Made by a program: the position numbers and the translations under genes. Source: an uncultured Eubacteriales bacterium (GTDB lineage Bacteria; Bacillota_A; Clostridia; Christensenellales; Aristaeellaceae). From it: 13,072 nt of DNA. The stretch is from the NCBI GenBank assembly GCA_902775835.1, contig CACYNZ010000070.1:1-13072 (forward strand). The letters are read 5' to 3'. Of the stretch, positions 2 to 12,426 are shown piece after piece. Position 1 is the stretch's first letter; the number at the start of each line of letters is the position of its first letter. Below the pieces are notes generated by a model. It saw only the letters and a program-made list of their open reading frames with translations, had not been told where the DNA came from and did no database searches.

Positions 2-766
2 GAGGTAAGCGAAAGCCCGGAAAATACGGAGGAACCGCCTGCATCGCCAGCACCTGCCGATGTACAGGAGGTGACCGAAGCGCCGGAGGTGACGGAAAGT
101 CCCGCTCTTGAAACGGAAGGAACTGCCGCGCCGACCGCTGTGGCCACAGATGCTCCAACAAAAAAGCCCGTGACTCCAACGGCAGTGCCAACACAGCCAG
201 CCTCCGGCATCAATCTGGAGGCGTGCCTTTCGCAGAACAGGGACTTTGTCGCCTGGCTGACGATTCCGGGAACAAAGATCAATTACCCCGTTGTCCGTTC
301 GGATAACACGGAGTATTACCTGCATCACCTGTTTACCGGAAAAGAAAGCAAGCTGGGCTGTCTGTTTTCCCTGAAAAGCTCGGATTACCAGACACCCAGC
401 AGGAACATAGCGATCTATGGCCATCATATCAGTCACAGCGATGCCATGTTCAGCACCCTGATGGATTACAAGAATGCCTCCTACTGCACCGCGCACAGCC
501 AGTTCCAGCTGAGCAGTCTGTATGGAGACCGAAATTACCGCGTTTTTGCGGTACTCAACATGAAGGTCAGCGATTGGGATGCCGCTACAGCTTCGTTCTC
601 AAGTGATGAGAGCTTCATGCGCTTCGTCAATCGCGCCGTCAAAAAGTCCATGGTTGATACCGGTGTTCAGGTAACGGCTGAGGACAACATCCTGACCCTG
701 ATCACCTGTGATCGCAGCTATGGCGGAGCCAGCGGGCGGCTTATCGTCATGGCTGTACAAGAATAA
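2..766 (+). CDS. srtB: Class B sortase, 5'-partial
   Basis: This is the C-terminal part of a membrane-bound cysteine transpeptidase that cleaves sorting signals and joins surface proteins to the wall or to each other. The frame is open from base 2, so the true start and the expected N-terminal membrane anchor lie off the left edge. The GTG at 71 sits inside the same Pro/Thr/Glu-rich linker and is unlikely to be the start. Counting from that GTG, residues 1-45 are low-complexity linker and about 48-231 form the sortase fold. The catalytic triad is visible: His118 in IAIYGHHIS, Cys213 in TLITC, and Arg223 in GASGRLIV. Its stop overlaps the ribosome site of the adhesin gene, so the two are probably cotranscribed. 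Its likely client is the anchor protein at 5918-8278, the only neighbour with a C-terminal membrane tail. Confidence 0.92.
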   Translation, partial: EVSESPENTEEPPASPAPADVQEVTEAPEVTESPALETEGTAAPTAVATDAPTKKPVTPTAVPTQPASGINLEACLSQNRDFVAWLTIPGTKINYPVVRSDNTEYYLHHLFTGKESKLGCLFSLKSSDYQTPSRNIAIYGHHISHSDAMFSTLMDYKNASYCTAHSQFQLSSLYGDRNYRVFAVLNMKVSDWDAATASFSSDESFMRFVNRAVKKSMVDTGVQVTAEDNILTLITCDRSYGGASGRLIVMAVQE

Positions 767-778: not shown

Positions 779-3700
779 ATGCAAGCGAGATTCAAGCGTT
801 TCACTGCGCTCATCCTGTCGGTGCTCATGGTGCTGACATGTATGCCCATGAGTGCGATGGCGGAAGAGACAGCGATTCCGACAGAGAACATCAGCATCGA
901 AGTGATCCCTGATGATGCTGAAGAGCTGGCTGATGAGGAGACTGCGCCGGCTGCGGACACAGATGCTTCTGTTCCCTCAGACGAGCCTGCGGGAGAAGCT
1001 GCTTCGGACGCGGAGAAAGTGACCGATCAGGCATCCTCCGAAGAGACATCCGCTCCTGAAGCACCGCAGGAAGAGCAGGTGTCCCAGGAGGAAGTGCCTC
1101 AGGAAGAGACGATTCCGCAAGCCGGGGAAACGGAGCCTGCGGAGGCTTCTGATGAACAGCCGGTCTCAGGGGAGAACCTGGCAGAAGAACCGGCAGCGGA
1201 AGCTCTGGCTGAAACCAGACAGGAAACCGCTGAACCGGCTGTAGATGATCGCCATCCTTTGCAGGCGGCGATTGATACCTACGGCCATATTTATGTGGCG
1301 ACGGTAGGACGGACAGACGTGTTCAGCACGGCGGAGCTGAAAGCGGACACTCTCATCTTCTCTACGGCTAAAGATGCTTTCCTGCTGATGGCGACAAAGT
1401 TCACTGAACAGAGCACCGTCAAGGTCTGGTTCCTGGACATGGATGGAAATGTGGTAACTGGTTTTGTCTCCAGAAAGGATCTGGATGAGGGATACCTTCT
1501 GGATGAGGACATCCGTGAGGTCAATTACCTTCCGGTGGGTCAGGGCATGACGGCCATCGGCATGATGAGCCTGTTCCAGGTGAACGGAAGCTATCCTGCC
1601 GCAGAGACAGATCCACAGATTGTGGAAGCGCCTGTGGATACTCCTTCCGAAGAGGAAGAGCCAGTAAGCACTGAAGCAGAGGAACCTGTTGAGAGCGAAC
1701 CGGCAGAGACTGAGCTTCCTGCTGAACCGGCGGAAGACGAGCCCCTGCCGGAAACCGATCCGGCAGAACAGTCTGCTTCTGAGGAAGAACCCCCTGCGGA
1801 TGAACCTCAGGAGCCCGAGCAGGAGGAGCCTGCGCCGGATTCTGAAACGGCAGAGAATCCTGAGGAAAGCACGGAAACCCCGGAAGCTTTTCCCACTGAA
1901 GCTGAGGATCCTCTTGGGGAAGCCTCGGAGACTTCCGATGAGCCTGCCTATGAAGCAGCCGGTTCCTATGTCGGCGTTACCACGAAAACCCGTGTGTTTG
2001 CCGGCATTGATGCCCAGGCATCTGAAACCTATTACAGCGGCGAATACCTGGGCAACTTTGTGAAGGATGCCACCGTTCAGATCCTGTCCGTCGATTTTGA
2101 TGAAACCGGTCATATCTGGTATCAGGTGCGGTTCCTCTACGGAGAGGATGCTGCCGACGGACGTATCAAGTGGACGGATTACGATTCCGTCTGGATTCTG
2201 TCTGATGAAACCGGTGAATCAGCAGATGAATTCCTTACGGTCACGGATTACGCCTATACGTTGGAGTTCCTGAACATGAAACGCAGCAGCGGAAGAAAAC
2301 GGCTCAGGGCTGCGACGCCCATGAACGGTTTTACGCTCAAAAACATCAGCGGTAAGGTCGGTGAATTCCATGCCGGCCAGTCTGACCTGTACGGAGACTC
2401 CGGCAGGAATGCTGAATATCCGCAGATCGCTGAGTCTGCTGCACACGGTAAAATCTACGCTCCCCCACACTATCTGGAGGGCTTCACGGTGTTCTGTCTG
2501 GAGCATAACCTCTCCGGTCCCGGTGAAGGTTCCGACTTCGGACCGATCCCAAAAGGTCCATTTATGGTGGTGGACATGGATGCTTTCGTGACGGATTCCA
2601 GCTATGGAGGCGCTTCCGGTGTCCGGTTTAAGGCCAGCACCATGCACGCCCTGGGATGGGTGCTGCGTCACACATATCCATTCATGGTGCTTGACCGCAG
2701 CGATTCCTACAACGAAGCATGGACCCGTGTAGCCGGTCAGTTTGCCATGCGCGAAGTCATCAAACAGCTGGAAGGCGCGGAGTATGTGCGCAGTTTCTGG
2801 GACATGGATAACTTCTATGCGTTTTCTGACGGTGCGCCTGCGGTGTATCTGGAATATGCCCGTTGGCTGGCGGCAAACGGCATCGCCCATGCAAAGATTA
2901 CCGGAAACATCACGGCTTCCAATCAGAGCCTGAGCGTTTCCGGCGGCAGCTATATCGGCACGGTCAAGCTGACCACAGATGCCGATCTGATCCGCATTCC
3001 CAGGTCTGCCGGTGCGATTACCGGGAACAGCGGCGGATCGGACGCCGACTATTACTACGTGAAGAGCGGAGATACTATCAGGATCACATCAACCATGAGC
3101 AGATTCTCCGTTTCCATGGAGTCTCTTTCCTCAAGTGAGGAGGAAGCCAATTTCCTTGTCGGCATTCCTTCCGTGGATCTCCAGAAGCTCATCGTCCCGA
3201 CGTACGGTGCGCCGAATTCTCTGAAAAGCGGAAGCATTACCTTTGAGCTGAGCCTGGGCGAGATTGCGGTCACCAAGAAATCGGATGACGGTATTCTGCT
3301 GAAGGGCACCGTGTTCGAGCTGCTGAACAGCTCTGGAGGCGTAATTGCCACGGCGACCACCGATGCCAACGGCGTAGCCACTTTTGCCAGCCTGCAGCCC
3401 GGTACCTACACCGTGAGGGAAAAGACGGCACCTCAGGGCTACAGGCTTGCGTCTGCTTCGCAGAACGTTTCTGTAGCCGCCGGCGTCACTTCGACCGTGA
3501 CTTTTATCAATCCGCGGATTACAGGCCGCATTCGGATTGTCAAAACAGATCAGCTGACAGAAAAGCCTCTGGCCGGTGCAGTGTTTACTGTCACCAGACT
3601 ATCCGGCCCTGAATCGGACAATGCTTCCGATATCGGGAAGGTAGTCGCCACCATCACCACCAATGCGCAGGGTATCGCTGAAACCAGCGTTCTGCCCTGG

Positions 3701-3781
3701 GGCGAGTACAAGGTTGTTGAAACGGGTGTGCCGGAGGACTATCTGGATTCCGGCTATACCGCTACTGTCTGGATCAAGTAA
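779..3781 (+). CDS. Secreted thioester (TQXA-like) adhesin with C-terminal CnaB domains
   Basis: This 1000-residue secreted protein is a likely surface adhesin. Numbered from ATG 779: signal peptide about 1-28 ending SAMA; acidic Pro/Glu/Ala-rich stalk 29-157; an SH3-like segment about 166-245; a second acidic stalk about 270-390; a second SH3-like segment about 396-475; a Cys-Gln thioester-type domain about 512-705; a complete CnaB domain about 827-911; and a shortened CnaB domain about 916-1000. The thioester candidates are Cys573 (VFCLEHN) and Gln654 (AGQFAMRE, resembling the family TQxA motif). Cys573 is the only cysteine in the mature protein. The first CnaB domain has Lys833, Glu881 and Asn911. 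The last has Lys922 and Glu981 but ends before the strand that would carry Asn. There is no LPXTG-like signal and no C-terminal membrane helix, so retention at the cell must come from another protein. The SH3 calls are tentative; the thioester call is good but made by motif only. Confidence 0.85.
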   Translation: MQARFKRFTALILSVLMVLTCMPMSAMAEETAIPTENISIEVIPDDAEELADEETAPAADTDASVPSDEPAGEAASDAEKVTDQASSEETSAPEAPQEEQVSQEEVPQEETIPQAGETEPAEASDEQPVSGENLAEEPAAEALAETRQETAEPAVDDRHPLQAAIDTYGHIYVATVGRTDVFSTAELKADTLIFSTAKDAFLLMATKFTEQSTVKVWFLDMDGNVVTGFVSRKDLDEGYLLDEDIREVNYLPVGQGMTAIGMMSLFQVNGSYPAAETDPQIVEAPVDTPSEEEEPVSTEAEEPVESEPAETELPAEPAEDEPLPETDPAEQSASEEEPPADEPQEPEQEEPAPDSETAENPEESTETPEAFPTEAEDPLGEASETSDEPAYEAAGSYVGVTTKTRVFAGIDAQASETYYSGEYLGNFVKDATVQILSVDFDETGHIWYQVRFLYGEDAADGRIKWTDYDSVWILSDETGESADEFLTVTDYAYTLEFLNMKRSSGRKRLRAATPMNGFTLKNISGKVGEFHAGQSDLYGDSGRNAEYPQIAESAAHGKIYAPPHYLEGFTVFCLEHNLSGPGEGSDFGPIPKGPFMVVDMDAFVTDSSYGGASGVRFKASTMHALGWVLRHTYPFMVLDRSDSYNEAWTRVAGQFAMREVIKQLEGAEYVRSFWDMDNFYAFSDGAPAVYLEYARWLAANGIAHAKITGNITASNQSLSVSGGSYIGTVKLTTDADLIRIPRSAGAITGNSGGSDADYYYVKSGDTIRITSTMSRFSVSMESLSSSEEEANFLVGIPSVDLQKLIVPTYGAPNSLKSGSITFELSLGEIAVTKKSDDGILLKGTVFELLNSSGGVIATATTDANGVATFASLQPGTYTVREKTAPQGYRLASASQNVSVAAGVTSTVTFINPRITGRIRIVKTDQLTEKPLAGAVFTVTRLSGPESDNASDIGKVVATITTNAQGIAETSVLPWGEYKVVETGVPEDYLDSGYTATVWIK
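2495..2740 (+). other. Thioester Cys-Gln core of the adhesin
   Basis: The span runs from the cysteine codon in VFCLEHN to the glutamine codon in AGQFAMRE, about 81 residues apart. Thioester domains of Gram-positive adhesins form an internal Cys-Gln bond that reacts with host-surface amines. The order (Cys first, then Gln at a helix start) and the absence of any other cysteine in the mature protein support the call. No thioester has been shown here. Confidence 0.7.
3524..3778 (+). other. Shortened C-terminal CnaB domain of the adhesin (putative acceptor)
   Basis: It begins GRIRIVKTD, with the reactive-type Lys922, and continues to VVETGVPEDY, with the catalytic-type Glu981. The protein stops at YTATVWIK, where the penultimate strand of a CnaB domain should end. 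The final strand and its Asn are absent. About 50 of 84 positions match the equally shortened last domain of the next gene in a gapless hand alignment. Confidence 0.75.
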
Positions 3782-3798
3782 CTGAGGAGGAATGAGAT

Positions 3799-5820
3799 AT
3801 GTTCAATATGAAGCGCTTTCTTCATCTGATGCTCGCAGTGATTATGCTGCTGTCCTGCTTTCAGAGTTCCTGTGCCTACGCCGCGGATGAACCTGCGACC
3901 GTCACCCTGCATGTCACCAACACACCCGTGCGCGGCGACATTATACTGGAAAAGAGTGGAATGCAGCTGGTTCGCTTTTCGGATGAAAAGGATTCCTATG
4001 GCAATACTGTCATGAAGCCGGTGTATCAGAACGGAAGTCTGGCCGGTGCTGTTTTCGAGCTTCATGCTGCCGAGAATATTGTCGGCAAGGAAGGCACCGT
4101 CTTCTACAAAAAGGATGAGCTGGTGGAAAAGCTGACCAGCAGCGCATCCGGCTCGGTCAGGTCCAGGGTGCTGCCTCTGGGCAAGTATTATCTGAAGGAG
4201 ATTTCCGCTCCGGACGGCTATGTGTTTGACAGCACTCCCCATAACGTTACCCTGTCCGCTGTGGACAAGAAGACGGCGGTTGTTGAGGTGAAGGTCTCTG
4301 TTTCCAATACCTATCTTCCGATTCGTGTGACACTGCGCAAGGAGAAGGAAAACCTGAAGGTGACCGAGACCGAGGATGGAATGATTCACCAGACCATTGA
4401 GGTGGTTCCCGGTCAGGGGTTTGTGTTCGGCCTGTACAACAATGCCGTGATCACATATGGCAATGATCAGAAGCTGCCTGCCAACACCCTGATGGCAACC
4501 GGAACCACGGATGCCAGAGGCAATCTGACCTTCTCCGGCATGTTCCCTCATGGGGATTACTACGTGAAGGAAATCTCTGTGCCCCAGGGCTGGCTGCTGA
4601 GCGCGGAAAAGTATCCCGTGAAGCTGACCAGTGCCAATAAGTCCGACAGCGAGAATGTGATCACTGTGTATCTGGAAGATCCTATCCTGAATCACCTGAT
4701 TTACACGCCGGTCACTCTCAGCAAGACGGACATGACCGGCAGGGAAAAGCTGGCCGGCGCGCTGATCGAAGTGTATGACGCGGACGGCAATGCTATCTAC
4801 CGCGATTACACCAATAGCAGGGGTGAGATCCCCAACATTCCTGTCGTGCCCGGCACCTACACCTTCAGAGAAGTCTGTGCTCCTTCCGGCTATGCACTGA
4901 ATGCCGCCATCAAAACCTTTGCCGTCACAGCGGACGGCAAGGTGACGGGCGATACCGTGATTCGTGATGAAGTGAACAGGGTGGCACTGAAGAAGGTCAA
5001 GGATAATGGCGATCCTCTGCCTGGCGCGGTTTTCGGACTGTTTGACGCGAAGGATACCAGGATCCAGGAAGCGACCTCCAAAGCGGACGGCTCTGTGGTG
5101 TTTGAGAAGATTCCGTATGGCAGCTATACCATCCGGGAAATCAGTGCTCCCTACGGCTACCACCCATCCAGGCAGGAATGGAAGGTGGACGTGGACGGCA
5201 CCTACGTCAATCCTTCTACGCTGCTTGCGACCGTTGAGAATCAGACGGCACCTGGCCACATAAAGATCCTCAAGCAGGATGAGCTGGATAAGCATGTGAT
5301 TGCCGGTGTGCAGTTCGACATTTTCAAGGTCGGTGCTGACGGCAAGCCGGGTGATCTGGTGGCGAAGATGACGACCGGCAAGGACGGGATCGCGGAATCT
5401 CCGGATCTGTTCCCGGCGGATTACTTTGTGCAGGAGCACGTAAATCCCACCGGCTATACAAATCAGCTGTGGAGTGAAAAGATCACCGTGGGCATGGATG
5501 AAACCATTACCCGGACCGTCACCAATATGCCGGTTCAGGGAAGGATCCGCATTGTGAAAACAGACAGCGAAACCGGCAGAGGCCTGCCCGGTGCGGTGTT
5601 TACGGTGACAAGGATTACCGGCCTGCCCAGCCATAACGGCGAGAATGACGGCGAAATCGTCGCGGTCATTACCTCCGGCGCTGACGGCACAGTGGAAACC
5701 CCACTGCTGACATGGGGCGAATACCAGATCGTTGAAACCCATGTGCCGGATGATTACCTGGATGCCGGTTATTCCGTGACGGTTCGAATTTCTGATGAAG
5801 TCAGGACAGAAGAACCCTAA
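3799..5820 (+). CDS. Multi-CnaB (SpaA-like) secreted middle/shaft protein without wall anchor
   Basis: This 673-residue secreted protein is made of CnaB/SpaA-type domains, which stiffen through internal Lys-Asn isopeptide bonds. The start is supported by AGGAGG at 3785-3790, 8 nt upstream. The signal peptide is about 1-28 (AYA cleavage motif). The mature N terminus carries a spare strand, TVTLHVTN, ending at Asn41. Six domains follow, at about 46-171, 174-300, 303-393, 394-482, 486-577 and 580-665. Lys/Glu/Asn sets are readable in the first five: K52/E134/N170, K181/E258/N298, K309/E358/N393, K399/E447/N481 and K492/E546/N576. The sixth has K587 and E646 but ends before the Asn strand. There is no sorting motif or membrane tail. 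Domains 1-4 are clearly paralogous to those of the gene at 5918, and domain 6 to the adhesin's last domain. I infer a link between tip and base, possibly a self-polymerising shaft. Confidence 0.85.
   Translation: MFNMKRFLHLMLAVIMLLSCFQSSCAYAADEPATVTLHVTNTPVRGDIILEKSGMQLVRFSDEKDSYGNTVMKPVYQNGSLAGAVFELHAAENIVGKEGTVFYKKDELVEKLTSSASGSVRSRVLPLGKYYLKEISAPDGYVFDSTPHNVTLSAVDKKTAVVEVKVSVSNTYLPIRVTLRKEKENLKVTETEDGMIHQTIEVVPGQGFVFGLYNNAVITYGNDQKLPANTLMATGTTDARGNLTFSGMFPHGDYYVKEISVPQGWLLSAEKYPVKLTSANKSDSENVITVYLEDPILNHLIYTPVTLSKTDMTGREKLAGALIEVYDADGNAIYRDYTNSRGEIPNIPVVPGTYTFREVCAPSGYALNAAIKTFAVTADGKVTGDTVIRDEVNRVALKKVKDNGDPLPGAVFGLFDAKDTRIQEATSKADGSVVFEKIPYGSYTIREISAPYGYHPSRQEWKVDVDGTYVNPSTLLATVENQTAPGHIKILKQDELDKHVIAGVQFDIFKVGADGKPGDLVAKMTTGKDGIAESPDLFPADYFVQEHVNPTGYTNQLWSEKITVGMDETITRTVTNMPVQGRIRIVKTDSETGRGLPGAVFTVTRITGLPSHNGENDGEIVAVITSGADGTVETPLLTWGEYQIVETHVPDDYLDAGYSVTVRISDEVRTEEP
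3895..3921 (+). other. Orphan N-terminal last-strand segment (putative donor) in the middle protein
   Basis: Just after the predicted signal cleavage (after residue 28), ATVTLHVTN ends in Asn41 and leads through TPVRG into the first complete domain. It closely resembles the real last strand of domain 5 of the same protein, TITRTVTN followed by MPVQG. No preceding domain exists for this strand to complete, and domain 1 already has its own Asn170. Confidence 0.7.
5539..5817 (+). other. Shortened C-terminal CnaB domain of the middle protein (putative acceptor)
   Basis: It starts GRIRIVKTD (K587), has VETHVPDDY (E646), and reaches YSVTVRI at the expected penultimate strand. A short acidic tail, SDEVRTEEP, follows instead of the last strand with Asn. 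This is the same end point as in the adhesin's last domain. Confidence 0.75.
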
Positions 5821-5855
5821 ACCGAAGAAACGCCAGATCCTGTGAAGTGAGTCTG

Positions 5856-5883
5856 AAGGCAGCGGCGAAAACCGCTGCCTTTT
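5856..5883 (+). terminator. Intrinsic terminator between middle and anchor protein genes
   Basis: A perfect 8-bp stem, GGCAGCGG (5858-5865) with CCGCTGCC (5872-5879), encloses a 6-nt CGAAAA loop and is followed by TTTTCTCTCTT. Flanking AA/TT can extend the stem. It lies 38 nt past the middle gene's stop and 34 nt before the anchor gene, so it could lower transcription of the anchor gene relative to the genes upstream. Confidence 0.85.
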
Positions 5884-5917
5884 CTCTCTTCATGAACTGA
5901 GAAACGAGGTATAACGG

Positions 5918-8278
5918 ATGTATTTTACAAGGAATAAAATGCCGGTCATCCTGCTTGCGCTGTTTCTGCTGATCGCCTGTCTGCCTGTTATGTCGATGGC
6001 TGAATCGGTGGACACGCAGGAAATTACGGTGGCCAATACGCCGATCAAGGGCCTGATTCAGATAAAGAAGCAGGGTCCGGTGCTGATCGGCTTCAACGAG
6101 CATCAGGATCCCTTCGGCAACACGGTGAACACGCCCATGTACAGCAAAGGCTCTGTGAGCGGCGCGGTGTTTGAAGTGCGCGCTGTGGAGGATATTGTCG
6201 GCAAGGATGGTACCCTCTGGTTCAAGGCGGACGAGGTGGCAGCTACACTGACCACAAAGGACGGCGAAGTGGAAACAGATCCGCTGCCGCTGGGGCACTA
6301 CTATGTGATGGAAGTATCCGCCCCTGAAGGGTATATCCTCGACAGTACCCGCTACGATGTGCTGCTGGAAGCCAGGGATCATGTGACGCCGACTGTCTCT
6401 GTCAGTGTGGTCGCAGTCAATGATTACATGCCCACAAAGATCAGCCTGTTCAAGGAAAAGGAGATTCTGAATACGGAAACGGATCAGGATGGTATGACCC
6501 ATACCATTCTGAAGCGTGTGCCCGGTGAGGGCTTTGTGTTCGGCCTTTATAACAGCGATCCCATCGCGTATGAAAATGGCACGCTGGACGCCGATACCCT
6601 GCTGGCGACTGCAGTCTCCGACAGGAACGGTAAAATCAGCTTCAGCGGTCAGTTCCCGCATGGGGAATACTGTGTTCGGGAACTCTCCGGGCCGGATGGC
6701 TGGAAGCTGAGTGAAGCGGATTTTCTGCTGAGAATCAGTGATGAATATGCCACAGAACATCATGAGATCGTCATCAGTCTGGATATGCCGGTTGTCAATG
6801 AACTGATTCACAGTGATGTGCGCGTGTCCAAGACGAATCTGAGCGGTTCGGATTATCTGCCGCATACACTGATCGAAGTGAAGAGCGAGGACGGTAAGAC
6901 TGTACTGAAGGATTACACCGGCGATGACGGTTATCTGCCAGCCTTCCCTGCTGTTCCCGGCAAATACACCTACCGTGAGGTACTGGCACCGGAGGGTTAT
7001 GAGCTTTGTACGGCCGAGCTGGCCTTCTCCGTCAATGAGCATGGTGAAATCGAAGGCAGGACAACAGTAACGGATGACTGCACCCGGTTCAGCCTCCTGA
7101 AGGTGGATGAGTATCATAAGCCCTTGGCTGGCGTAGAGTTCGGCCTCTTCCGGGAGGATGGTACGCAGCAGGCAAAGGCAGTATCGGATGAAAAGGGTCT
7201 TGTGACCTTTGAAAAGATCCCGTATGGCACCTACACCGTTCAGGAAACCAAAACATTGACCGGCTACCTGAAGAATCTCACCAGGGTGCCGATTACCATT
7301 GACGGAACATTTGTCAATCCGAAGGAGCCGATTGCCACGCTGGAAAACTGCCAGTCCGAGATCCTGATCCGGAAGGTCGATCAGAACAGCACGGCACTGC
7401 AGGGCGCTGAGTTTGGGCTGTATGACGAAAGCGGCAGGCTGGTCATGACCGCTGTCTCTGATATGGAGGGCAACGTCCGTTTCATCGGCGTGGATTATGG
7501 GAAATATACCATCCGCGAGCTTTCTGCTCCGGACGGATATCTGGCTGGCCGCGATGTGATCTCCATCACCATTGACGAGGGCTATACCAATACCGACCAG
7601 CCCGCAGCGACTGTGATCAATCCCGAGAAGAAGATCATGTGCATCAAGGCGGATACCTCCGGTAAGCCTATCCCCGGGGTTGAATTCTCCCTCTACAATG
7701 CCGCCACCATGGAAAAGGTGGAGACTGCTGTCAGCGACAAGGATGGTGTAATCATCTTCCGCAATTTCGATTACGGCGACTGGATCATCCGTGAAAACGC
7801 GGCTCCGGAAGGGTATTCCAGGATGGAAGATATCCGCTTCCAGGTCAGCACCGGCTGGAAAGAGCCCAAGCCTATCCTGTGCGTGAATATCCCGAACCAC
7901 TACGAATTTATGAAAACTGACAGTTCCGGCAATCCTCTGGCCGGCGCGAAATTCCGACTGGAGGATGAAAACGGCAAGGATCTGGGTACCTATGAGTCCG
8001 GTAAGGACGGCATGGTACAGATCAAAGACCTGAAGCCTGGCACCTATCTCATCCGGGAGATTGAAACCCTGGAGGGCTACAGCGTTTCCGGCGAGGTCAT
8101 TAAGCTGAAGCTGGATGAATACTACACGGTCCCTGAAAAGCCGACACAGTTCGTCAACTACACCACCATCCAGACCGGCGTGCATATCGCGGTCACCGGA
8201 GTCATGTGGGCAGGCCTTGGCCTGATGGCGATCAGCGGCACGGTGGGGCTGATCCGCAGGCGGCGTAAAACGAACTAA
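5918..8278 (+). CDS. Multi-CnaB (SpaA-like) surface protein with C-terminal anchor (base)
   Basis: This 786-residue surface protein is the likely wall- or membrane-attached base of the fibre. The ribosome site GAGGT at 5906-5910 is weaker than those of its neighbours. Signal peptide about 1-28 (SMA motif). A spare N-terminal strand, EITVAN, ends at Asn40. Seven CnaB domains follow at about 45-168, 171-294, 297-389, 390-477, 480-568, 571-657 and 660-747. Lys/Glu/Asn sets: K51/E132/N168, K179/E255/N294, K395/E443/N477, K486/E534/N568, K577/E626/N657 and K666/E714/N747. Domain 3 has K305 and E354 but Thr389 where Asn is expected. After the last domain come TIQTG (750-754), a hydrophobic helix about 756-779 and the basic tail RRRRKTN, the layout of a sortase signal with an unusual motif. 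Unlike the two upstream proteins, its last domain is complete. It is paralogous to the middle protein over domains 1-4. Confidence 0.87.
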   Translation: MYFTRNKMPVILLALFLLIACLPVMSMAESVDTQEITVANTPIKGLIQIKKQGPVLIGFNEHQDPFGNTVNTPMYSKGSVSGAVFEVRAVEDIVGKDGTLWFKADEVAATLTTKDGEVETDPLPLGHYYVMEVSAPEGYILDSTRYDVLLEARDHVTPTVSVSVVAVNDYMPTKISLFKEKEILNTETDQDGMTHTILKRVPGEGFVFGLYNSDPIAYENGTLDADTLLATAVSDRNGKISFSGQFPHGEYCVRELSGPDGWKLSEADFLLRISDEYATEHHEIVISLDMPVVNELIHSDVRVSKTNLSGSDYLPHTLIEVKSEDGKTVLKDYTGDDGYLPAFPAVPGKYTYREVLAPEGYELCTAELAFSVNEHGEIEGRTTVTDDCTRFSLLKVDEYHKPLAGVEFGLFREDGTQQAKAVSDEKGLVTFEKIPYGTYTVQETKTLTGYLKNLTRVPITIDGTFVNPKEPIATLENCQSEILIRKVDQNSTALQGAEFGLYDESGRLVMTAVSDMEGNVRFIGVDYGKYTIRELSAPDGYLAGRDVISITIDEGYTNTDQPAATVINPEKKIMCIKADTSGKPIPGVEFSLYNAATMEKVETAVSDKDGVIIFRNFDYGDWIIRENAAPEGYSRMEDIRFQVSTGWKEPKPILCVNIPNHYEFMKTDSSGNPLAGAKFRLEDENGKDLGTYESGKDGMVQIKDLKPGTYLIREIETLEGYSVSGEVIKLKLDEYYTVPEKPTQFVNYTTIQTGVHIAVTGVMWAGLGLMAISGTVGLIRRRRKTN
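6014..6037 (+). other. Orphan N-terminal last-strand segment (putative donor) in the anchor protein
   Basis: The mature N terminus (after about residue 28) has TQEITVAN ending in Asn40, followed by TPIKG and the first complete CnaB domain. The Asn sits about 12 residues into the mature chain, against about 13 in the middle protein, and the following T-P-[VI]-[RK]-G is shared. Confidence 0.7.
8165..8275 (+). other. C-terminal sorting-like signal (TIQTG, helix, basic tail)
   Basis: Residues 750-786 of the anchor protein read TIQTG, then about 24 mostly hydrophobic residues, then RRRRKTN. Position and layout match cell-wall sorting signals. The motif itself has Ile where LPXTG and NPXTG-type signals have Pro. 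It may be the specific substrate of the class B sortase at 2-766. Confidence 0.65.
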
Positions 8279-8325
8279 GCAGGGAGAGATGCCTGAATGA
8301 AGCGTCTGTATTTCCTTCACCGACT

Positions 8326-8352
8326 GGAGGTGCCTCCCTGGCACTTCCTTTT
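8326..8352 (+). terminator. Intrinsic terminator before the transfer genes
   Basis: Stem GGAGGTGCC (8326-8334) with GGCACTTCC (8340-8348), including one G-T wobble, a TCCCT loop and a TTTT run at 8349-8352. It lies between the anchor gene and the DUF3801 gene. Only about 14 nt separate it from the next ribosome site, leaving no room for a separate promoter, so transfer genes would depend on read-through or an upstream start. Confidence 0.75.
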
Positions 8353-8379
8353 CCATTCTGACAGAGAAGGGAGATTCCC

Positions 8380-8868
8380 ATGCAGGAAGAGATCGAAAAC
8401 AAATCGGTGACCCTGATCATCAATACCAGTAAGCTGACGGCGCGAACCCTGACGACGGCGTTCATGAAATTCCTGCGCTACTCCAAAGGAAAGCTCAAAG
8501 ATCATCATGATGTAAAGCCGCAGGGTAAGCAGTCAGTCAAGAAGCTGATCGCCCAGAACCAGGGTGTGGAAAAGACCGAGCTGGCTGACAGGGCTGAGGT
8601 GAAAACCTTCGATCATATTGCCAGGCAGTATGGCGTGGATTATGCCATCAAGAAAGGCATGTCCCCGGAGGGGAAGCAGCGCTACATACTGTTCTTCAAG
8701 GCCCGTGACCGGAGTGCCATTGACCAGGCTATGTCCGCCTATGCTGCCAGCTACGTGAAAAAGCATAAGCGGGAGCATCCGCCCATTGAACAGGTCGCAG
8801 ATCCGCTCAAGGAAATGCTGCCGGGCCGCAAAAAGGATCGCGTCCGGGAGAAGGGGATGCAGCGATGA
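8380..8868 (+). CDS. DUF3801 / PcfB-like conjugation accessory protein
   Basis: A 162-residue soluble, basic protein with no signal peptide or membrane segment. Length, composition and position directly before a VirD4 gene match the PcfB/DUF3801 family. In plasmid pCF10, PcfB acts with the coupling protein PcfC and the relaxase to deliver the DNA substrate to the channel. Visible features are an N-terminal strand-rich start (VTLIINTSKLTARTL), a lysine-rich middle (about 36-52) and a Lys/Arg-rich C-terminal tail. The ATG is preceded by AAGGGAGA at 8367-8374. Its stop overlaps the VirD4 start by 4 nt (ATGA), so translation is probably coupled. The family call is from recognition and context. 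Confidence 0.8.
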   Translation: MQEEIENKSVTLIINTSKLTARTLTTAFMKFLRYSKGKLKDHHDVKPQGKQSVKKLIAQNQGVEKTELADRAEVKTFDHIARQYGVDYAIKKGMSPEGKQRYILFFKARDRSAIDQAMSAYAASYVKKHKREHPPIEQVADPLKEMLPGRKKDRVREKGMQR

Positions 8869-10718
8869 ACGGTGATAAGCTGAAAAAGCAGTTGATCCTT
8901 AATGTCCCGTATATCCTGATCGGGCTTTACGCGACCAAACTGGGAGAAGCCTGGCGCTTAGCCGAGGGTGCTGACGCTTCTCAAAAATTCCTCCACCTGA
9001 TGGACGGCTTCAGCGCCGCCTTTCAGTCTGCGCTTCCCAGCTTTCATCCTACGGATCTCCTGATCGGTCTGCTGGTCGGCTGCGTGCTGCGTCTGCTGGT
9101 GTATGAGAAAAGCCGGAACGCAAAAAAATATCGGCGCAATGAAGAGTACGGCTCCGCCCGCTGGGGTACGCACTCCGATATCGCGCCGTTCATTGATCCG
9201 GATCCATGGAACAATGTAATCCTGACGAAAACGGAAAGCCTGACCATGAGCAGCCGTCCGAAGGATCCGCGCAATGCCCGGAACAAAAATGTGCTGGTGG
9301 TCGGTGGCTCCGGTTCCGGCAAAACCAGGTTTTTCATCAAGCCCAACATCATGCAGTGTACAAAAACGAAGGGTACATCGATCGTAGTCACCGATCCGAA
9401 AGGTACCCTGATCGTGGAAACCGGCAAAATGCTGGTCGCCGCCGGCTATGACGTCCGGGCGTTCAATACGATCAATTTTCAGAAGTCGATGCACTACAAT
9501 CCGTTCGCCTATATTCATTCAGAAAAGGATATCCTGAAGCTTGTTACCGTCCTCATCTCCAATACCAAGGGTGAAGGAAAAGGCGGCGACGATTTCTGGG
9601 TAAAAGCGGAAACGCTGCTGTACATCGCTCTGATCGGATATATCCATTACGAGCTGCCGCCGGAGGAGCAGAACTTCGCGACCCTGATCGACATGCTCAA
9701 CAAAATGGATGCCCGTGAGGATGATGAGGATTACCAGAACGAGGTGGATCGCTGGTTCGAGGATCTTGGCAGACGGAAGCCGGGACACTTCGCTGTTCGG
9801 CAGTATGCCAAGTATAAGATGGCTGCCGGCAAGACAGCGAAGAGCATCCTGGTCAGCTGCGGCGCACGCCTGGCTGTATTTGATATTGAGGAGCTTCGGG
9901 AGATTACAGCCTACGATGAGCTTCATCTGGATACGATTGGAGAAAAGCGGACGGCCCTGTTTCTCATCATGTCAGACACGGACGCCAGCTTCAATTTTCT
10001 CATCAGCATGGCGTATTCTCAGATGTTCAATCTGCTCTGCGAAATGGCGGACGATGTGCACGGAGGCCGCCTGCCGGTGCATGTCCGCTGCCTGATCGAT
10101 GAATTTGCCAACATCGGGCAGATTCCCAACTTTGAGAAGCTGATCGCCACCATCCGCAGCCGTGAGATTTCAGCATGTATTGTCCTCCAGGCACAGTCTC
10201 AGCTCAAGGCGATCTACAAGGATAATGCGGATACCATTGTCGGCAACTGCGACACGCTGCTGTTTCTCGGCGGCAAGGAAAAGACCACGCTCAAGGAGAT
10301 GGAGGAGCTCCTGGGCAAGGAAACCATTGATACGTTCAATACCGGCGAGAGCCGGGGCCGTGAGACCTCTCACAGCCTGAACTATCAGAAGCTCGGCAAA
10401 TCCCTGATGTCGGTGGACGAGATCGCTGTCATGGACGGCGGCAAATGTATCCTGCAGGTTCGGGGCGTCAGACCCTTCCTCTCGGACAAGTACGACATCA
10501 CATCGCATCCCAACTACAAATATCTGTCAGACTCCGATCCCAGGAACGCCTTCCACATCGAAAAGTACCTTTCCCGCCAGCTGAGGCTTCGGCTGGAGGA
10601 AGAAAGTCAGGTCTGGGAAATCGACGTGAGCGATACCCCGGGTGAGGAGGAAGAGCTTCTGGAAGAGCTGACGGATGAAACCCAACTACTGGCTGCCGGA
10701 TATGGCGGCCTTTTATAA
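8865..10718 (+). CDS. virD4: VirD4/TraG-type conjugative coupling protein (T4SS ATPase)
   Basis: A 617-residue membrane ATPase that links the relaxase-DNA complex to the secretion channel. Two N-terminal hydrophobic segments (about 11-25 and 63-80) precede the cytoplasmic ATPase domain. The Walker A motif is GGSGSGKT at 147-154. The Walker B-type motif is LIDEFANIG, with Asp412-Glu413, and is characteristic of VirD4/TraG coupling proteins. TSIVVTDPKG (171-180) and the IVLQAQSQL segment (about 439-447) are further family-typical stretches. The C terminus is strongly acidic (about 577-604). The length is normal for the family. The gene overlaps the PcfB-like gene by 4 nt and is followed 15 nt later by Maff2, fitting one transfer operon. 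Confidence 0.95.
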   Translation: MNGDKLKKQLILNVPYILIGLYATKLGEAWRLAEGADASQKFLHLMDGFSAAFQSALPSFHPTDLLIGLLVGCVLRLLVYEKSRNAKKYRRNEEYGSARWGTHSDIAPFIDPDPWNNVILTKTESLTMSSRPKDPRNARNKNVLVVGGSGSGKTRFFIKPNIMQCTKTKGTSIVVTDPKGTLIVETGKMLVAAGYDVRAFNTINFQKSMHYNPFAYIHSEKDILKLVTVLISNTKGEGKGGDDFWVKAETLLYIALIGYIHYELPPEEQNFATLIDMLNKMDAREDDEDYQNEVDRWFEDLGRRKPGHFAVRQYAKYKMAAGKTAKSILVSCGARLAVFDIEELREITAYDELHLDTIGEKRTALFLIMSDTDASFNFLISMAYSQMFNLLCEMADDVHGGRLPVHVRCLIDEFANIGQIPNFEKLIATIRSREISACIVLQAQSQLKAIYKDNADTIVGNCDTLLFLGGKEKTTLKEMEELLGKETIDTFNTGESRGRETSHSLNYQKLGKSLMSVDEIAVMDGGKCILQVRGVRPFLSDKYDITSHPNYKYLSDSDPRNAFHIEKYLSRQLRLRLEEESQVWEIDVSDTPGEEEELLEELTDETQLLAAGYGGLL

Positions 10719-11009: not shown

Positions 11010-11016
11010 GATGTCC

Positions 11017-11886
11017 TTGAATTTCATTTGGGACAAGATTACCGAGTGGCTAAAAGAGCTGCTGGTCGGCGGCATCGTCAGCAATCTGTCCGGACTGTTT
11101 GACAGTATCAATACCCGGGTAGCCGATGTGGCTTCAACTGTGGGTAAGACACCCCAGGCGTGGAACGGAAGCATCTTCAGTATGATCAAGAGTCTTTCTG
11201 AAAATGTGGTGGTGCCCATCGCCGGGATCATCCTGACCTTTGTCATGTGCCTTGAGCTGATTCAGCTTCTGATCGACCGGAACAACATGCATGATTTTGA
11301 GACCTTCATTTTCTTTAAATGGGTTTTCAAGACCTTTGCCGCCGTGCTGATCGTCACCAATACCTGGAACATTGTTATGGGTGTTTTTGATGTCGCGCAG
11401 CATGTGGTCAGTCAGGCAGCCGGTGTGATCATCGGGGATACAGCACTGGATATATCAACGCTGCTCGGAGATATGGAAGCGAAGCTCATGGAAATGGACA
11501 TTGGTCCGCTGTTCGGGCTGTGGTTCCAGTCCTCCCTCATGGGCATTATTGCATGGGTGCTGAGCATCTGCATCTTCATCATCGTGTATGGCCGAATGAT
11601 CGAGATCTACATGGTGACTTCCGTCGCTCCCATCCCCATGGCGACCATGGTCAACCGGGAATGGGGCCAGATGGGACAGAACTATCTGCGGTCGCTCTTT
11701 GCCCTTGGCTTTCAGGCGTTCCTCATTATGGTGTGCGTTGGAATCTATGCCGTGCTGGTGCAGAACATCAGTGTGGGCAGTGACGTCAGCGCCGCGCTCT
11801 GGACGTGCATCGGGTACACGGTGCTGCTGTGTTTCACCCTGTTCAAGTCCAGCTCCGTCGCCAGGTCCATTTTCAACGCACATTAA
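11017..11886 (+). CDS. VirB6/TrbL-like polytopic channel protein
   Basis: A membrane protein of 289 residues from TTG 11017 (291 from ATG 11011), matching the VirB6/TrbL-like inner-membrane component of Tn1549-type conjugation systems by sequence character and gene order. An amphipathic N-terminal stretch (NFIWDKITEWLKELLVGG) is followed by about five or six hydrophobic segments, near residues 60-86, 96-122, 164-195, 226-249 and 256-276. The TTG is preferred because of ribosome-site spacing. In T4SS, VirB6-type proteins form the membrane passage and contact the VirB4 and VirB3 proteins, which are the next genes here. It is separated from Maff2 by the hairpin at 10971-10998. Confidence 0.85.
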   Translation: MNFIWDKITEWLKELLVGGIVSNLSGLFDSINTRVADVASTVGKTPQAWNGSIFSMIKSLSENVVVPIAGIILTFVMCLELIQLLIDRNNMHDFETFIFFKWVFKTFAAVLIVTNTWNIVMGVFDVAQHVVSQAAGVIIGDTALDISTLLGDMEAKLMEMDIGPLFGLWFQSSLMGIIAWVLSICIFIIVYGRMIEIYMVTSVAPIPMATMVNREWGQMGQNYLRSLFALGFQAFLIMVCVGIYAVLVQNISVGSDVSAALWTCIGYTVLLCFTLFKSSSVARSIFNAH

Positions 11887-12042: not shown

Positions 12043-12426
12043 ATGGCTTATGTACCTGTTCCTAAAGATCTGACCCGCGTCAAATCCAAGTTCCTGTTCA
12101 ACCTGACCAAGCGGCAGGTTGTCTGCTTCGGTCTGGGAGCACTGGCTGGTCTGCCGGTGTTCTTCCTGACCAAGGAGGCGATCGGCGTGAGTATGGCGGC
12201 GGCGCTCATGATTGTCATCATGCTGCCGTTTTTTCTGTTCGCCATGTTTGAACGCAACGGCCAGCCTCTGGAGGTTCTGCTGAAGCATTACGTTCAGGCC
12301 CGGTTCGTCCGGCCAAGGACGCGTATATTTCAAACGGAGAATTTTTACGCTGCCCTTGAACAGAACACGAGAAACAGACGGGAGGTCAGAAAGATCCTTC
12401 ATGGCAAGAAAAAAGGAAAAGCTTAA
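12043..12426 (+). CDS. PrgI-family (VirB3-like) T4SS membrane protein
   Basis: A 127-residue protein with a conserved-looking N terminus (AYVPVPKDLTRVKSKF), two adjacent hydrophobic helices at about 26-43 and 49-71, and a basic C-terminal tail ending GKKKGKA. This fits the PrgI family, a VirB3-like partner of VirB4 in Gram-positive conjugation systems. AGGAGG at 12030-12035 lies 7 nt before the ATG. The 3' end overlaps the virB4 start by 26 nt, which agrees with the tight functional pairing of VirB3 and VirB4. Confidence 0.88.
   Translation: MAYVPVPKDLTRVKSKFLFNLTKRQVVCFGLGALAGLPVFFLTKEAIGVSMAAALMIVIMLPFFLFAMFERNGQPLEVLLKHYVQARFVRPRTRIFQTENFYAALEQNTRNRREVRKILHGKKKGKA

What the first reader, a model, noticed from the sequence alone, without database searches (positions are those of the whole stretch)
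779..8278. Putative natural split-CnaB fibre: tip adhesin, middle protein and anchored base joined in gene order
Three consecutive secreted proteins carry complementary half-domains. The adhesin has only a C-terminal acceptor (a CnaB domain missing its last strand and Asn). The middle protein has an N-terminal orphan last strand with Asn and a C-terminal acceptor. The base has an N-terminal orphan strand, a complete last domain and a membrane/sorting tail. The spare parts match the gaps exactly in gene order. CnaB domains are known to form Lys-Asn bonds between first and last strands, and the engineered SpyTag/SpyCatcher pair shows that a separated last strand can rejoin covalently. I infer head-to-tail assembly by donor-strand insertion and intermolecular isopeptide bonds, with sortase needed only at the base. 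I do not know of a described system of this form, but I could not search for one.
Basis: partly seen in the sequence, partly recalled or inferred. Interest (0 to 1): 0.93.

Follow-up and report, generated by a model that had tools for sequence, protein, structure and literature searches.

The report
Natural SpyTag/SpyCatcher-like fibre on a conjugative element
Three neighbouring surface-protein genes on a conjugative element of gut Clostridia end and begin in the middle of one kind of protein domain, so that each protein carries the piece the one before it lacks, and they are predicted to click together, likely by a self-made covalent bond, into one anchored adhesive stalk, a trick that our searches turned up only as laboratory-engineered protein glue.

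Summary
The adhesin (779-3781) and middle protein (3799-5820) end inside a CnaB domain just before its last strand; the middle and base (5918-8278) begin, after a signal peptide, with such a strand and its Asn. Conserved: middle donor Asn 120 of 120, base donor Asn 118 of 120 (two lack that N-terminus), acceptor Lys 120 of 120 twice, Glu 120 and 119 of 120; matched ends in 11 of 11 complete loci. New: related elements carry, in the same slot, one giant protein that starts like the adhesin and ends like the base, in which the acceptor-type domains are whole and the base's orphan strand closes a preceding domain. Split loci fall on one side of a branch (100/99). AlphaFold2 orders the middle's strand (pLDDT about 87) when the adhesin acceptor is in the chain and leaves it disordered when it is not. 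Paper listings showed only engineered split CnaB domains. Best explanation: head-to-tail donor-strand joining, likely sealed by Lys-Asn isopeptide bonds, with sortase needed only at the base. The bond is untested.

The parts
2..766 (+). Class B-like sortase (5' end outside the window)
   Evidence: Pfam Sortase 2.7e-13; TIGR03064 class B 135.1 bits, below its cut-off of 153.75, the protein being incomplete
779..3781 (+). Tip adhesin: signal peptide, acidic N region, thioester-type domain, CnaB D1, truncated CnaB D2 (acceptor)
2495..2497 (+). Cys573 of the thioester motif (FCLE)
   Evidence: Cys in 120 of 120 homologues; motif form [YFL]C-hydrophobic-hydrophilic as printed in PMC8092201
2738..2740 (+). 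Gln654, candidate thioester partner
   Evidence: Gln in 120 of 120; role inferred
3524..3778 (+). Acceptor domain of the adhesin (residues 916-1000): CnaB without last strand and Asn; Lys922 (3542-3544), Glu981 (3719-3721)
   Evidence: profile 1-72 of 92; Lys and Glu 120 of 120; positions checked
3799..5820 (+). Middle protein: signal peptide, orphan donor strand, five CnaB-type domains, truncated sixth (acceptor)
3895..3927 (+). Orphan donor strand of the middle protein (residues 33-43), Asn41 at 3919-3921
   Evidence: Asn 120 of 120; in the L010 relative, ordered strand only with the adhesin acceptor present
5539..5817 (+). Acceptor domain of the middle protein (residues 581-673); Lys587 (5557-5559), Glu646 (5734-5736)
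   Evidence: profile 1-77 of 92; Lys 120 of 120, Glu 119 of 120
5918..8278 (+). Base protein: signal peptide, orphan donor strand, seven CnaB-type domains, sorting tail
6014..6043 (+). Orphan donor strand of the base protein (residues 33-42), Asn40 at 6035-6037
   Evidence: Asn in 118 of 120; 2 lack this N-terminus
8162..8275 (+). Sorting tail of the base: TTIQTG, hydrophobic stretch, RRRRKTN
   Evidence: xIQTG or xFQTG in 114 of 120 base homologues; the other 6 have cut or shifted ends by eye; role as sorting signal inferred
8380..8868 (+). DUF3801 protein of the element (context)
   Evidence: Pfam PF12687
8865..10718 (+). VirD4-like coupling protein, CD1115 family (context)
   Evidence: NF045973, 569.3 bits, cut-off 250
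11011..11886 (+). TrbL/VirB6-like protein (context)
   Evidence: PF19478
12043..12426 (+). PrgI family protein (context)
   Evidence: PF12666
12401..13072 (+). VirB4-like ATPase, CD1110 family, 3' end outside the window (context)
   Evidence: NF045971, 215.6 bits for the part present, below the cut-off of 325

Best explanation
Three consecutive genes of a conjugative element encode a thioester-type adhesin, a middle protein and a base with a sorting tail that carry complementary halves of split CnaB domains, and they are predicted to assemble head to tail by inserting each protein's orphan N-terminal strand into the unfinished last domain of the one before it, where a Lys-Asn isopeptide bond likely forms by itself. 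Shown by sequence and calls: the missing strand, the orphan strand, the kept Lys, Glu and Asn, and one-piece relatives in the same gene slot in which acceptor-type domains are whole and the base's strand closes a preceding domain. Predicted by model: the strand docks in the acceptor domain. Inferred: the covalent bond in trans; that the class B-like sortase fixes only the base to the wall; that the stalk holds the thioester adhesin away from the cell for mating contact. The cassette likely arose when a one-piece giant adhesin was cut between the last two strands of CnaB domains and the pieces gained their own starts and signal peptides. The middle protein looks like a base-like front joined to a giant-like back, so it carries both plug and socket and could repeat.
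For: Profile truncation of both acceptors against whole domains in L014, L015 and L016. Donor Asn, acceptor Lys and Glu conserved. 11 of 11 loci with all three genes have all matched ends and a base IQTG tail. One-piece proteins in the same slot between sortase and DUF3801/VirD4: L014, L015, L022, L023, L092. L015 residues 1722-2480 are 48% identical to the base from residue 33, and the strand there closes an intact preceding domain. Tree of the thioester region: 11 split rows on one side of a branch at 100/99 against 9 one-piece-type rows. AlphaFold2 model 1: acceptor block means pLDDT 79-93, linker below 50, donor strand 530-540 about 87. Matches of model 1 to the two-domain LGG SpaA pilin end at model 542, 543, 544 = chain 299, 300, 301 (rmsd 9.2-9.3 over both domains), which puts the donor Asn538 level with SpaA 295, the residue mutated in the entry titles. 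Model 2: the same middle strand, now without its acceptor, is disordered, while the base strand becomes a strand. Adhesin and middle have no hydrophobic tail.
Against: No experiment; no cross-link seen. The models are single tethered chains (stop codons read as Gly), with shallow alignments (14 and 21 rows) and pTM 0.45 and 0.47; coordinates were not given, so Lys-Asn distances were not measured. The base donor in model 2 is weak (block means 48 and 67), and 2 of 50 listed matches reach it. The one-piece proteins hold no copy of the adhesin-middle junction itself, and the domain that the base's strand closes there is not of the acceptor type. Conserved Lys and Glu would also fit a domain closed without a covalent bond. 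Many of the 120 rows per protein are near-copies. The loci are MAG or metagenome sequence; no cultured host was found.
Confidence: 0.77

Rival explanations
1. The strand exchange is real but not covalent: the orphan strand completes the domain by hydrogen bonds and packing alone, as in chaperone-usher pili.
For: Docking does not need the bond; the models cannot show a bond.
Against: The full Lys-Glu-Asn triad is kept at both junctions. Engineered CnaB domains cut at the same place can form the bond in trans: two of four in one study, slowly (PMC5487036, passages).
Confidence: 0.12
2. The middle protein joins mainly to itself (homopolymer, or a ring by its own two ends) and the adhesin and base are end caps of a long fibre. 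This uses the same chemistry and does not exclude the best explanation.
For: The middle has both plug and socket; adhesin and middle acceptors are 57% identical; donors of middle and base share N-x-P-x-x-G.
Against: Each one-piece relative has a set number of domains, though it differs between elements; none of the 11 complete split loci has a second middle gene; a ring would need a rod of six domains to bend back. In model 2 the middle's N-terminus did not enter its own last domain, which the base strand could fill.
Confidence: 0.3
3. The parts do not join: the gene was split by accident and the orphan ends are leftovers.
For: Broken one-piece genes do occur (L083, L084), as does a CnaB gene cut by a stop (L058).
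Against: In those broken genes the later piece has no signal peptide. The split cassettes have ribosome-site-like sequences and signal peptides by eye and keep the ends over loci 62-79% identical to the window in the thioester region, with the donor Asn kept in every homologue that has this N-terminus.
Confidence: 0.06
4. The three genes are really read as one protein by stop-codon read-through or frameshifting, so no assembly is needed.
For: Adhesin and middle frames agree in 8 of the 13 places where the middle start was placed, out of 14 looked at.
Against: They disagree in the other 5, the window among them (L003 was not placed); each gene has a ribosome-site-like sequence, and the later signal peptides would lie in mid-chain.
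Confidence: 0.02

Closest known systems
SpyTag/SpyCatcher and other engineered split CnaB tag/catcher pairs (PMC5487036, passages read)
   Same: A CnaB domain cut before its last strand; Lys and Glu on the large part, Asn (or Asp) on the strand; rejoining in trans.
   Different: Engineered in the laboratory. Here the cut lies between natural neighbouring genes, twice in a row, with the tag at the N-terminus of a secreted protein.
TIE adhesins: BaTIE (PDB 6fwv) and the pLS20 conjugation adhesin (PMC8092201, passages and Discussion read)
   Different: BaTIE is one chain with its own sorting signal. The pLS20 protein lacks a sorting signal and its anchoring is an open question in that paper; no split CnaB end was seen in it by eye.
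Sortase-assembled pili of Gram-positive bacteria (recalled; PMC8244301 and PMC6123636 seen in listings only)
   Same: Tip adhesin, shaft and base in one operon with a sortase; CnaB domains.
   Different: There sortase joins subunits at sorting signals; here adhesin and middle have none.
Archaeal threads of Sulfolobus (PMC9715654, passages read)
   Same: N-terminal donor strand completes the neighbour's fold, with a proposed isopeptide bond between subunits.
   Different: Not described there as CnaB; one repeated subunit; the proposed bond joins N-terminal Asp24 to Asn57 two subunits along.
CD0386 of C. difficile CTn1 (PMC3158075 and PMC5569036, passages read)
   Same: CnaB-repeat surface protein encoded on a conjugative transposon and anchored by a class B sortase.
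   Different: One protein with a SPKTG signal; no split partner is described in the passages read.

Membership tests
CnaB / SpaA (prealbumin-like) isopeptide domains | Profile match | tested here: met
   PF17802: adhesin 2.8e-34, middle 2.4e-93, base 1.6e-107
CnaB / SpaA (prealbumin-like) isopeptide domains | Complete domain in one chain with Lys, Glu and Asn | tested here: not met
   Last domains of adhesin and middle lack the last strand and Asn
CnaB / SpaA (prealbumin-like) isopeptide domains | Isopeptide bond formed | not testable with these tools
   Needs mass spectrometry or a structure
Sortase-assembled pilus | Sorting signal on every joined subunit | tested here: not met
   No hydrophobic tail in the window's adhesin or middle (highest 19-residue means after residue 40: 1.2 and 1.04; base 1.68)
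Sortase-assembled pilus | Pilus-type (class C) sortase in the operon | tested here: inconclusive
   The one sortase seen in the window is incomplete and matches class B best, below that model's cut-off; genes outside the window were not examined
Chaperone-usher donor-strand pili | Incomplete domain plus N-terminal donor strand on the next subunit | tested here: met
   By sequence and prediction only
Chaperone-usher donor-strand pili | Chaperone and usher genes | tested here: not met
   None among the 9 window proteins scanned
TIE adhesins (thioester, isopeptide, ester) | Thioester Cys motif and Gln | tested here: met
   Cys573 in FCLE and Gln654, each 120 of 120
TIE adhesins (thioester, isopeptide, ester) | Thioester domain fold | tested here: inconclusive
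   Residues 1-196 of model 1 are below pLDDT 50; 6fwv aligns from its residue 132 on
Natural split CnaB (tag/catcher-like) pair | Halves on separate secreted proteins whose counterparts lie in whole domains of one-piece relatives | tested here: met
Natural split CnaB (tag/catcher-like) pair | Covalent joining in trans | not testable with these tools
   Needs mixed purified proteins

The most novel reading that the evidence does not exclude
This is a natural self-welding pilus: a conjugative element makes adhesin, repeatable middle and anchored base as plug-and-socket parts that polymerise outside the cell by donor-strand insertion and spontaneous Lys-Asn isopeptide bonds, with no sortase, chaperone or usher between subunits and with a length set by the supply of middle protein.
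Probability: 0.4. Interest if true: 0.95.

Novelty: new variant of a known kind. Interest (0 to 1): 0.87.

Why it matters
If true, it is a natural version of a tool known to us only as man-made, and a way for Gram-positive bacteria to build a covalent surface fibre without joining subunits by sortase. It offers one possible answer to a question left open in print for a conjugation adhesin without a sorting signal (how it stays on the cell; PMC8092201), although that protein itself shows no split end by eye. It would supply naturally evolved, two-junction tag/catcher pairs. It is also a clear case of genes split at a strand boundary, with whole and split forms side by side: the genomes of L011 and L017 hold both.

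Tried and rejected
Viral contigs gave no relative; plasmid and phage records gave partial CnaB matches, 0 of 50 and 0 of 18 records covering 80% of the query. P0202 and P0203 looked like natural adhesin-middle fusions but keep the middle's signal peptide and have a shifted stretch at the junction by eye, so they were not counted as evidence. P0214 is a one-piece-type relative without a sorting tail in its listed sequence. L083 and L084 looked like two-piece splits but are frame-disrupted one-piece genes whose later piece lacks a signal peptide; L094 stops without the base tail. The pLS20 adhesin was checked as a possible second case and shows no split end by eye. The order-wide search found the adhesin in 4 of 396 genomes; the family-wide search with the middle profile in 26 of 300, and the same 26 from another centre. 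L092 gave no hit for the tree and was left out; of its 9 one-piece-type rows, 5 (L014, L015, L022, L023, L087) have both ends in view and 4 (L016, L084, L094, L095) are cut or disrupted. The VirD4 tree (7 split, 3 one-piece rows) has only 58/94 support for the split side. The first set of control loci was too short to show protein ends, so longer stretches were fetched. A hydrophobic stretch of 1.6 or more after residue 45 was seen in 6 of 120 adhesin rows (4 of them at residues 186-250, 2 the shifted fusions) and, after rounding, 1 of 120 middle rows (none without rounding). Structural matches of both models were drawn from 1000 Foldseek-ranked chains, 50 shown. Paper listings with split, fission and strand terms showed only engineered or unrelated systems.

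Full report
What is in the window. The window is part of a conjugative element of Clostridia type: class B-like sortase (2-766), adhesin (779-3781), middle protein (3799-5820), base protein (5918-8278), DUF3801 (8380-8868), VirD4 of the CD1115 family (8865-10718), TrbL-like (11011-11886), PrgI (12043-12426) and the start of a CD1110-type VirB4. No whole genome is held for it. The 17 loci found in genome contigs are titled MAG or uncultured, of Clostridia; two bear a Christensenella or Christensenellaceae name.

The ends. CnaB domains close with a last strand that carries the bond-forming Asn (recalled); between consecutive domains here it reads like VTNMPVQG. The adhesin stops at GYTATVWIK and the middle at GYSVTVRISDEVRTEEP, before any such strand. 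The middle and the base start, after a signal peptide, with ATVTLHVTNTP and TQEITVANTP. A profile built here from whole domains (92 positions) matches the adhesin's last domain over 1-72 and the middle's over 1-77; acceptor-type domains of L014, L015 and L016 reach 91 or 92. Scored the same way, the last domains of base and one-piece proteins also match only in part (for example 5-75), but their chains run on for some 50 residues to the sorting tail, with an Asn (FVNYTT) just before it.

Conservation. The searches listed 120 of 885 middle, 120 of 911 adhesin and 120 of 2130 base homologues. Donor Asn of the middle: 120 of 120. Donor Asn of the base: 118 of 120, the other two lacking that N-terminus. 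Acceptor Lys: 120 of 120 in the adhesin and in the middle. Acceptor Glu: 120 of 120 and 119 of 120; the exception, P0074, has a shifted tail. Many rows are near-copies, so the counts are not independent; the 19-row middle alignment (70-89% identical to the window) and the 15-row adhesin alignment (45-77%) keep the same residues invariant.

Gene context. Eleven loci including the window hold all three genes with the four ends in question; in 11 of 11 the adhesin is cut, the middle has donor and cut end, and the base has donor and IQTG tail. Of the other split loci, L002 runs off the contig in the middle gene, L001's middle breaks off after 74 codons near the contig end, L006's middle leaves the family after about residue 622 near the contig end, and L012 ends after the adhesin; the ends that are present agree. 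Three of the 17 loci (L014, L015, L016) carry instead one protein of 2214, 2480 and at least 2082 residues, starting like the adhesin and ending like the base; L022 and L023 add two of 2730, and adds L087 (1831) and L092 (3196), with others cut or disrupted. In L014, L015, L022, L023 and L092 the flanks are the same: sortase before, DUF3801 and VirD4 after. In L014-L016 the domain homologous to the adhesin's acceptor is followed in the same chain by its last strand, and the strand homologous to the base's orphan N-terminus closes a preceding domain. Limits: the middle's base-like front has no second copy there, so the adhesin-middle junction as such is not seen, and the domain closed by the base-type strand is not of the acceptor type.

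Origin. In a tree of the thioester region, 11 split rows are one side of a branch (100/99) against 9 one-piece-type rows; midpoint rooting, for drawing only, makes the split derived. The middle's residues 29-481 resemble the base (43-44%), its last 192 resemble the repeat pairs of the one-piece proteins (47%) more than the base (27%), and its acceptor is 57% identical to the adhesin's. So the middle is a base-like plug with an adhesin-like socket.

Anchoring and role. Adhesin and middle have no hydrophobic tail; the base does, with TTIQTG before it. The adhesin keeps a thioester-type Cys (FCLE) and a Gln in 120 of 120. A thioester adhesin is needed for efficient mating of pLS20, and how it stays on the cell is open (PMC8092201, passages and Discussion). 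I infer that this stalk holds donor and recipient cells together and that its parts are held on the cell through the base.

Against what is known. Engineered tag/catcher pairs use the same cut (PMC5487036, passages). Archaeal threads combine donor strands with a proposed inter-subunit bond of another kind (PMC9715654, passages). A 2025 survey of isopeptide bonds names inter-chain autocatalytic bonds in phage capsids and in a helical hairpin; its main text does not hold the words split or SpyTag (PMC12617251, passages). A sortase-independent filament system of Bacillus cereus is built otherwise (PMC13082335, passages). The listings (20 of 22; 9 of 9; 20 of 46; 20 of 55; 14 of 14; 10 of 56; 9 of 9; 15 of 40), judged by title and start of abstract, showed no natural split CnaB pair. 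Most subscription papers and preprints are not held, so this is not proof of absence.

Verdict. The covalent bond, the anchoring and the question of repeating middles need the bench.

Noticed in passing
G007 and G012 (genomes of L011 and L017); L023, L022: These two genomes carry both the split cassette and, on another contig, a one-piece 2730-residue form, so whole and split stalks occur in one assembly.
   Followed up: partly
L083, L084, L094: One-piece-type genes disrupted or ended early; in L083 and L084 the later piece has no signal peptide. They may be assembly errors or decayed genes, in contrast to the split cassettes.
   Followed up: partly
L008 19261-20658 and 23099-23668: The VirD4 gene appears as two pieces about 2.4 kb apart; what lies between was not identified.
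   Followed up: no
L006 (same contig as L090) after about residue 622 of the middle protein; L091: The middle gene leaves the family near the contig end; another contig of the same genome (L091) carries a normal middle end followed by a base gene. Insertion or assembly effect not resolved.
   Followed up: partly
L058 96-6275: Another CnaB surface protein of the genome of L013 is cut by a stop inside a CnaB domain; the second piece has no signal peptide.
   Followed up: partly
one-piece proteins L014, L015, L022, L023, L087, L092: The number of CnaB profile hits varies from 10 to 29 (cut-offs 1e-4 and 1e-3), with an alternating pair of domain types in L014-L016, so stalk length seems to vary widely between elements.
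   Followed up: no
window 3754-5742 and 5801-8356, minus strand: Long open frames (662 and 851 residues) lie antisense to the middle and base genes; probably a by-product of codon use.
   Followed up: no
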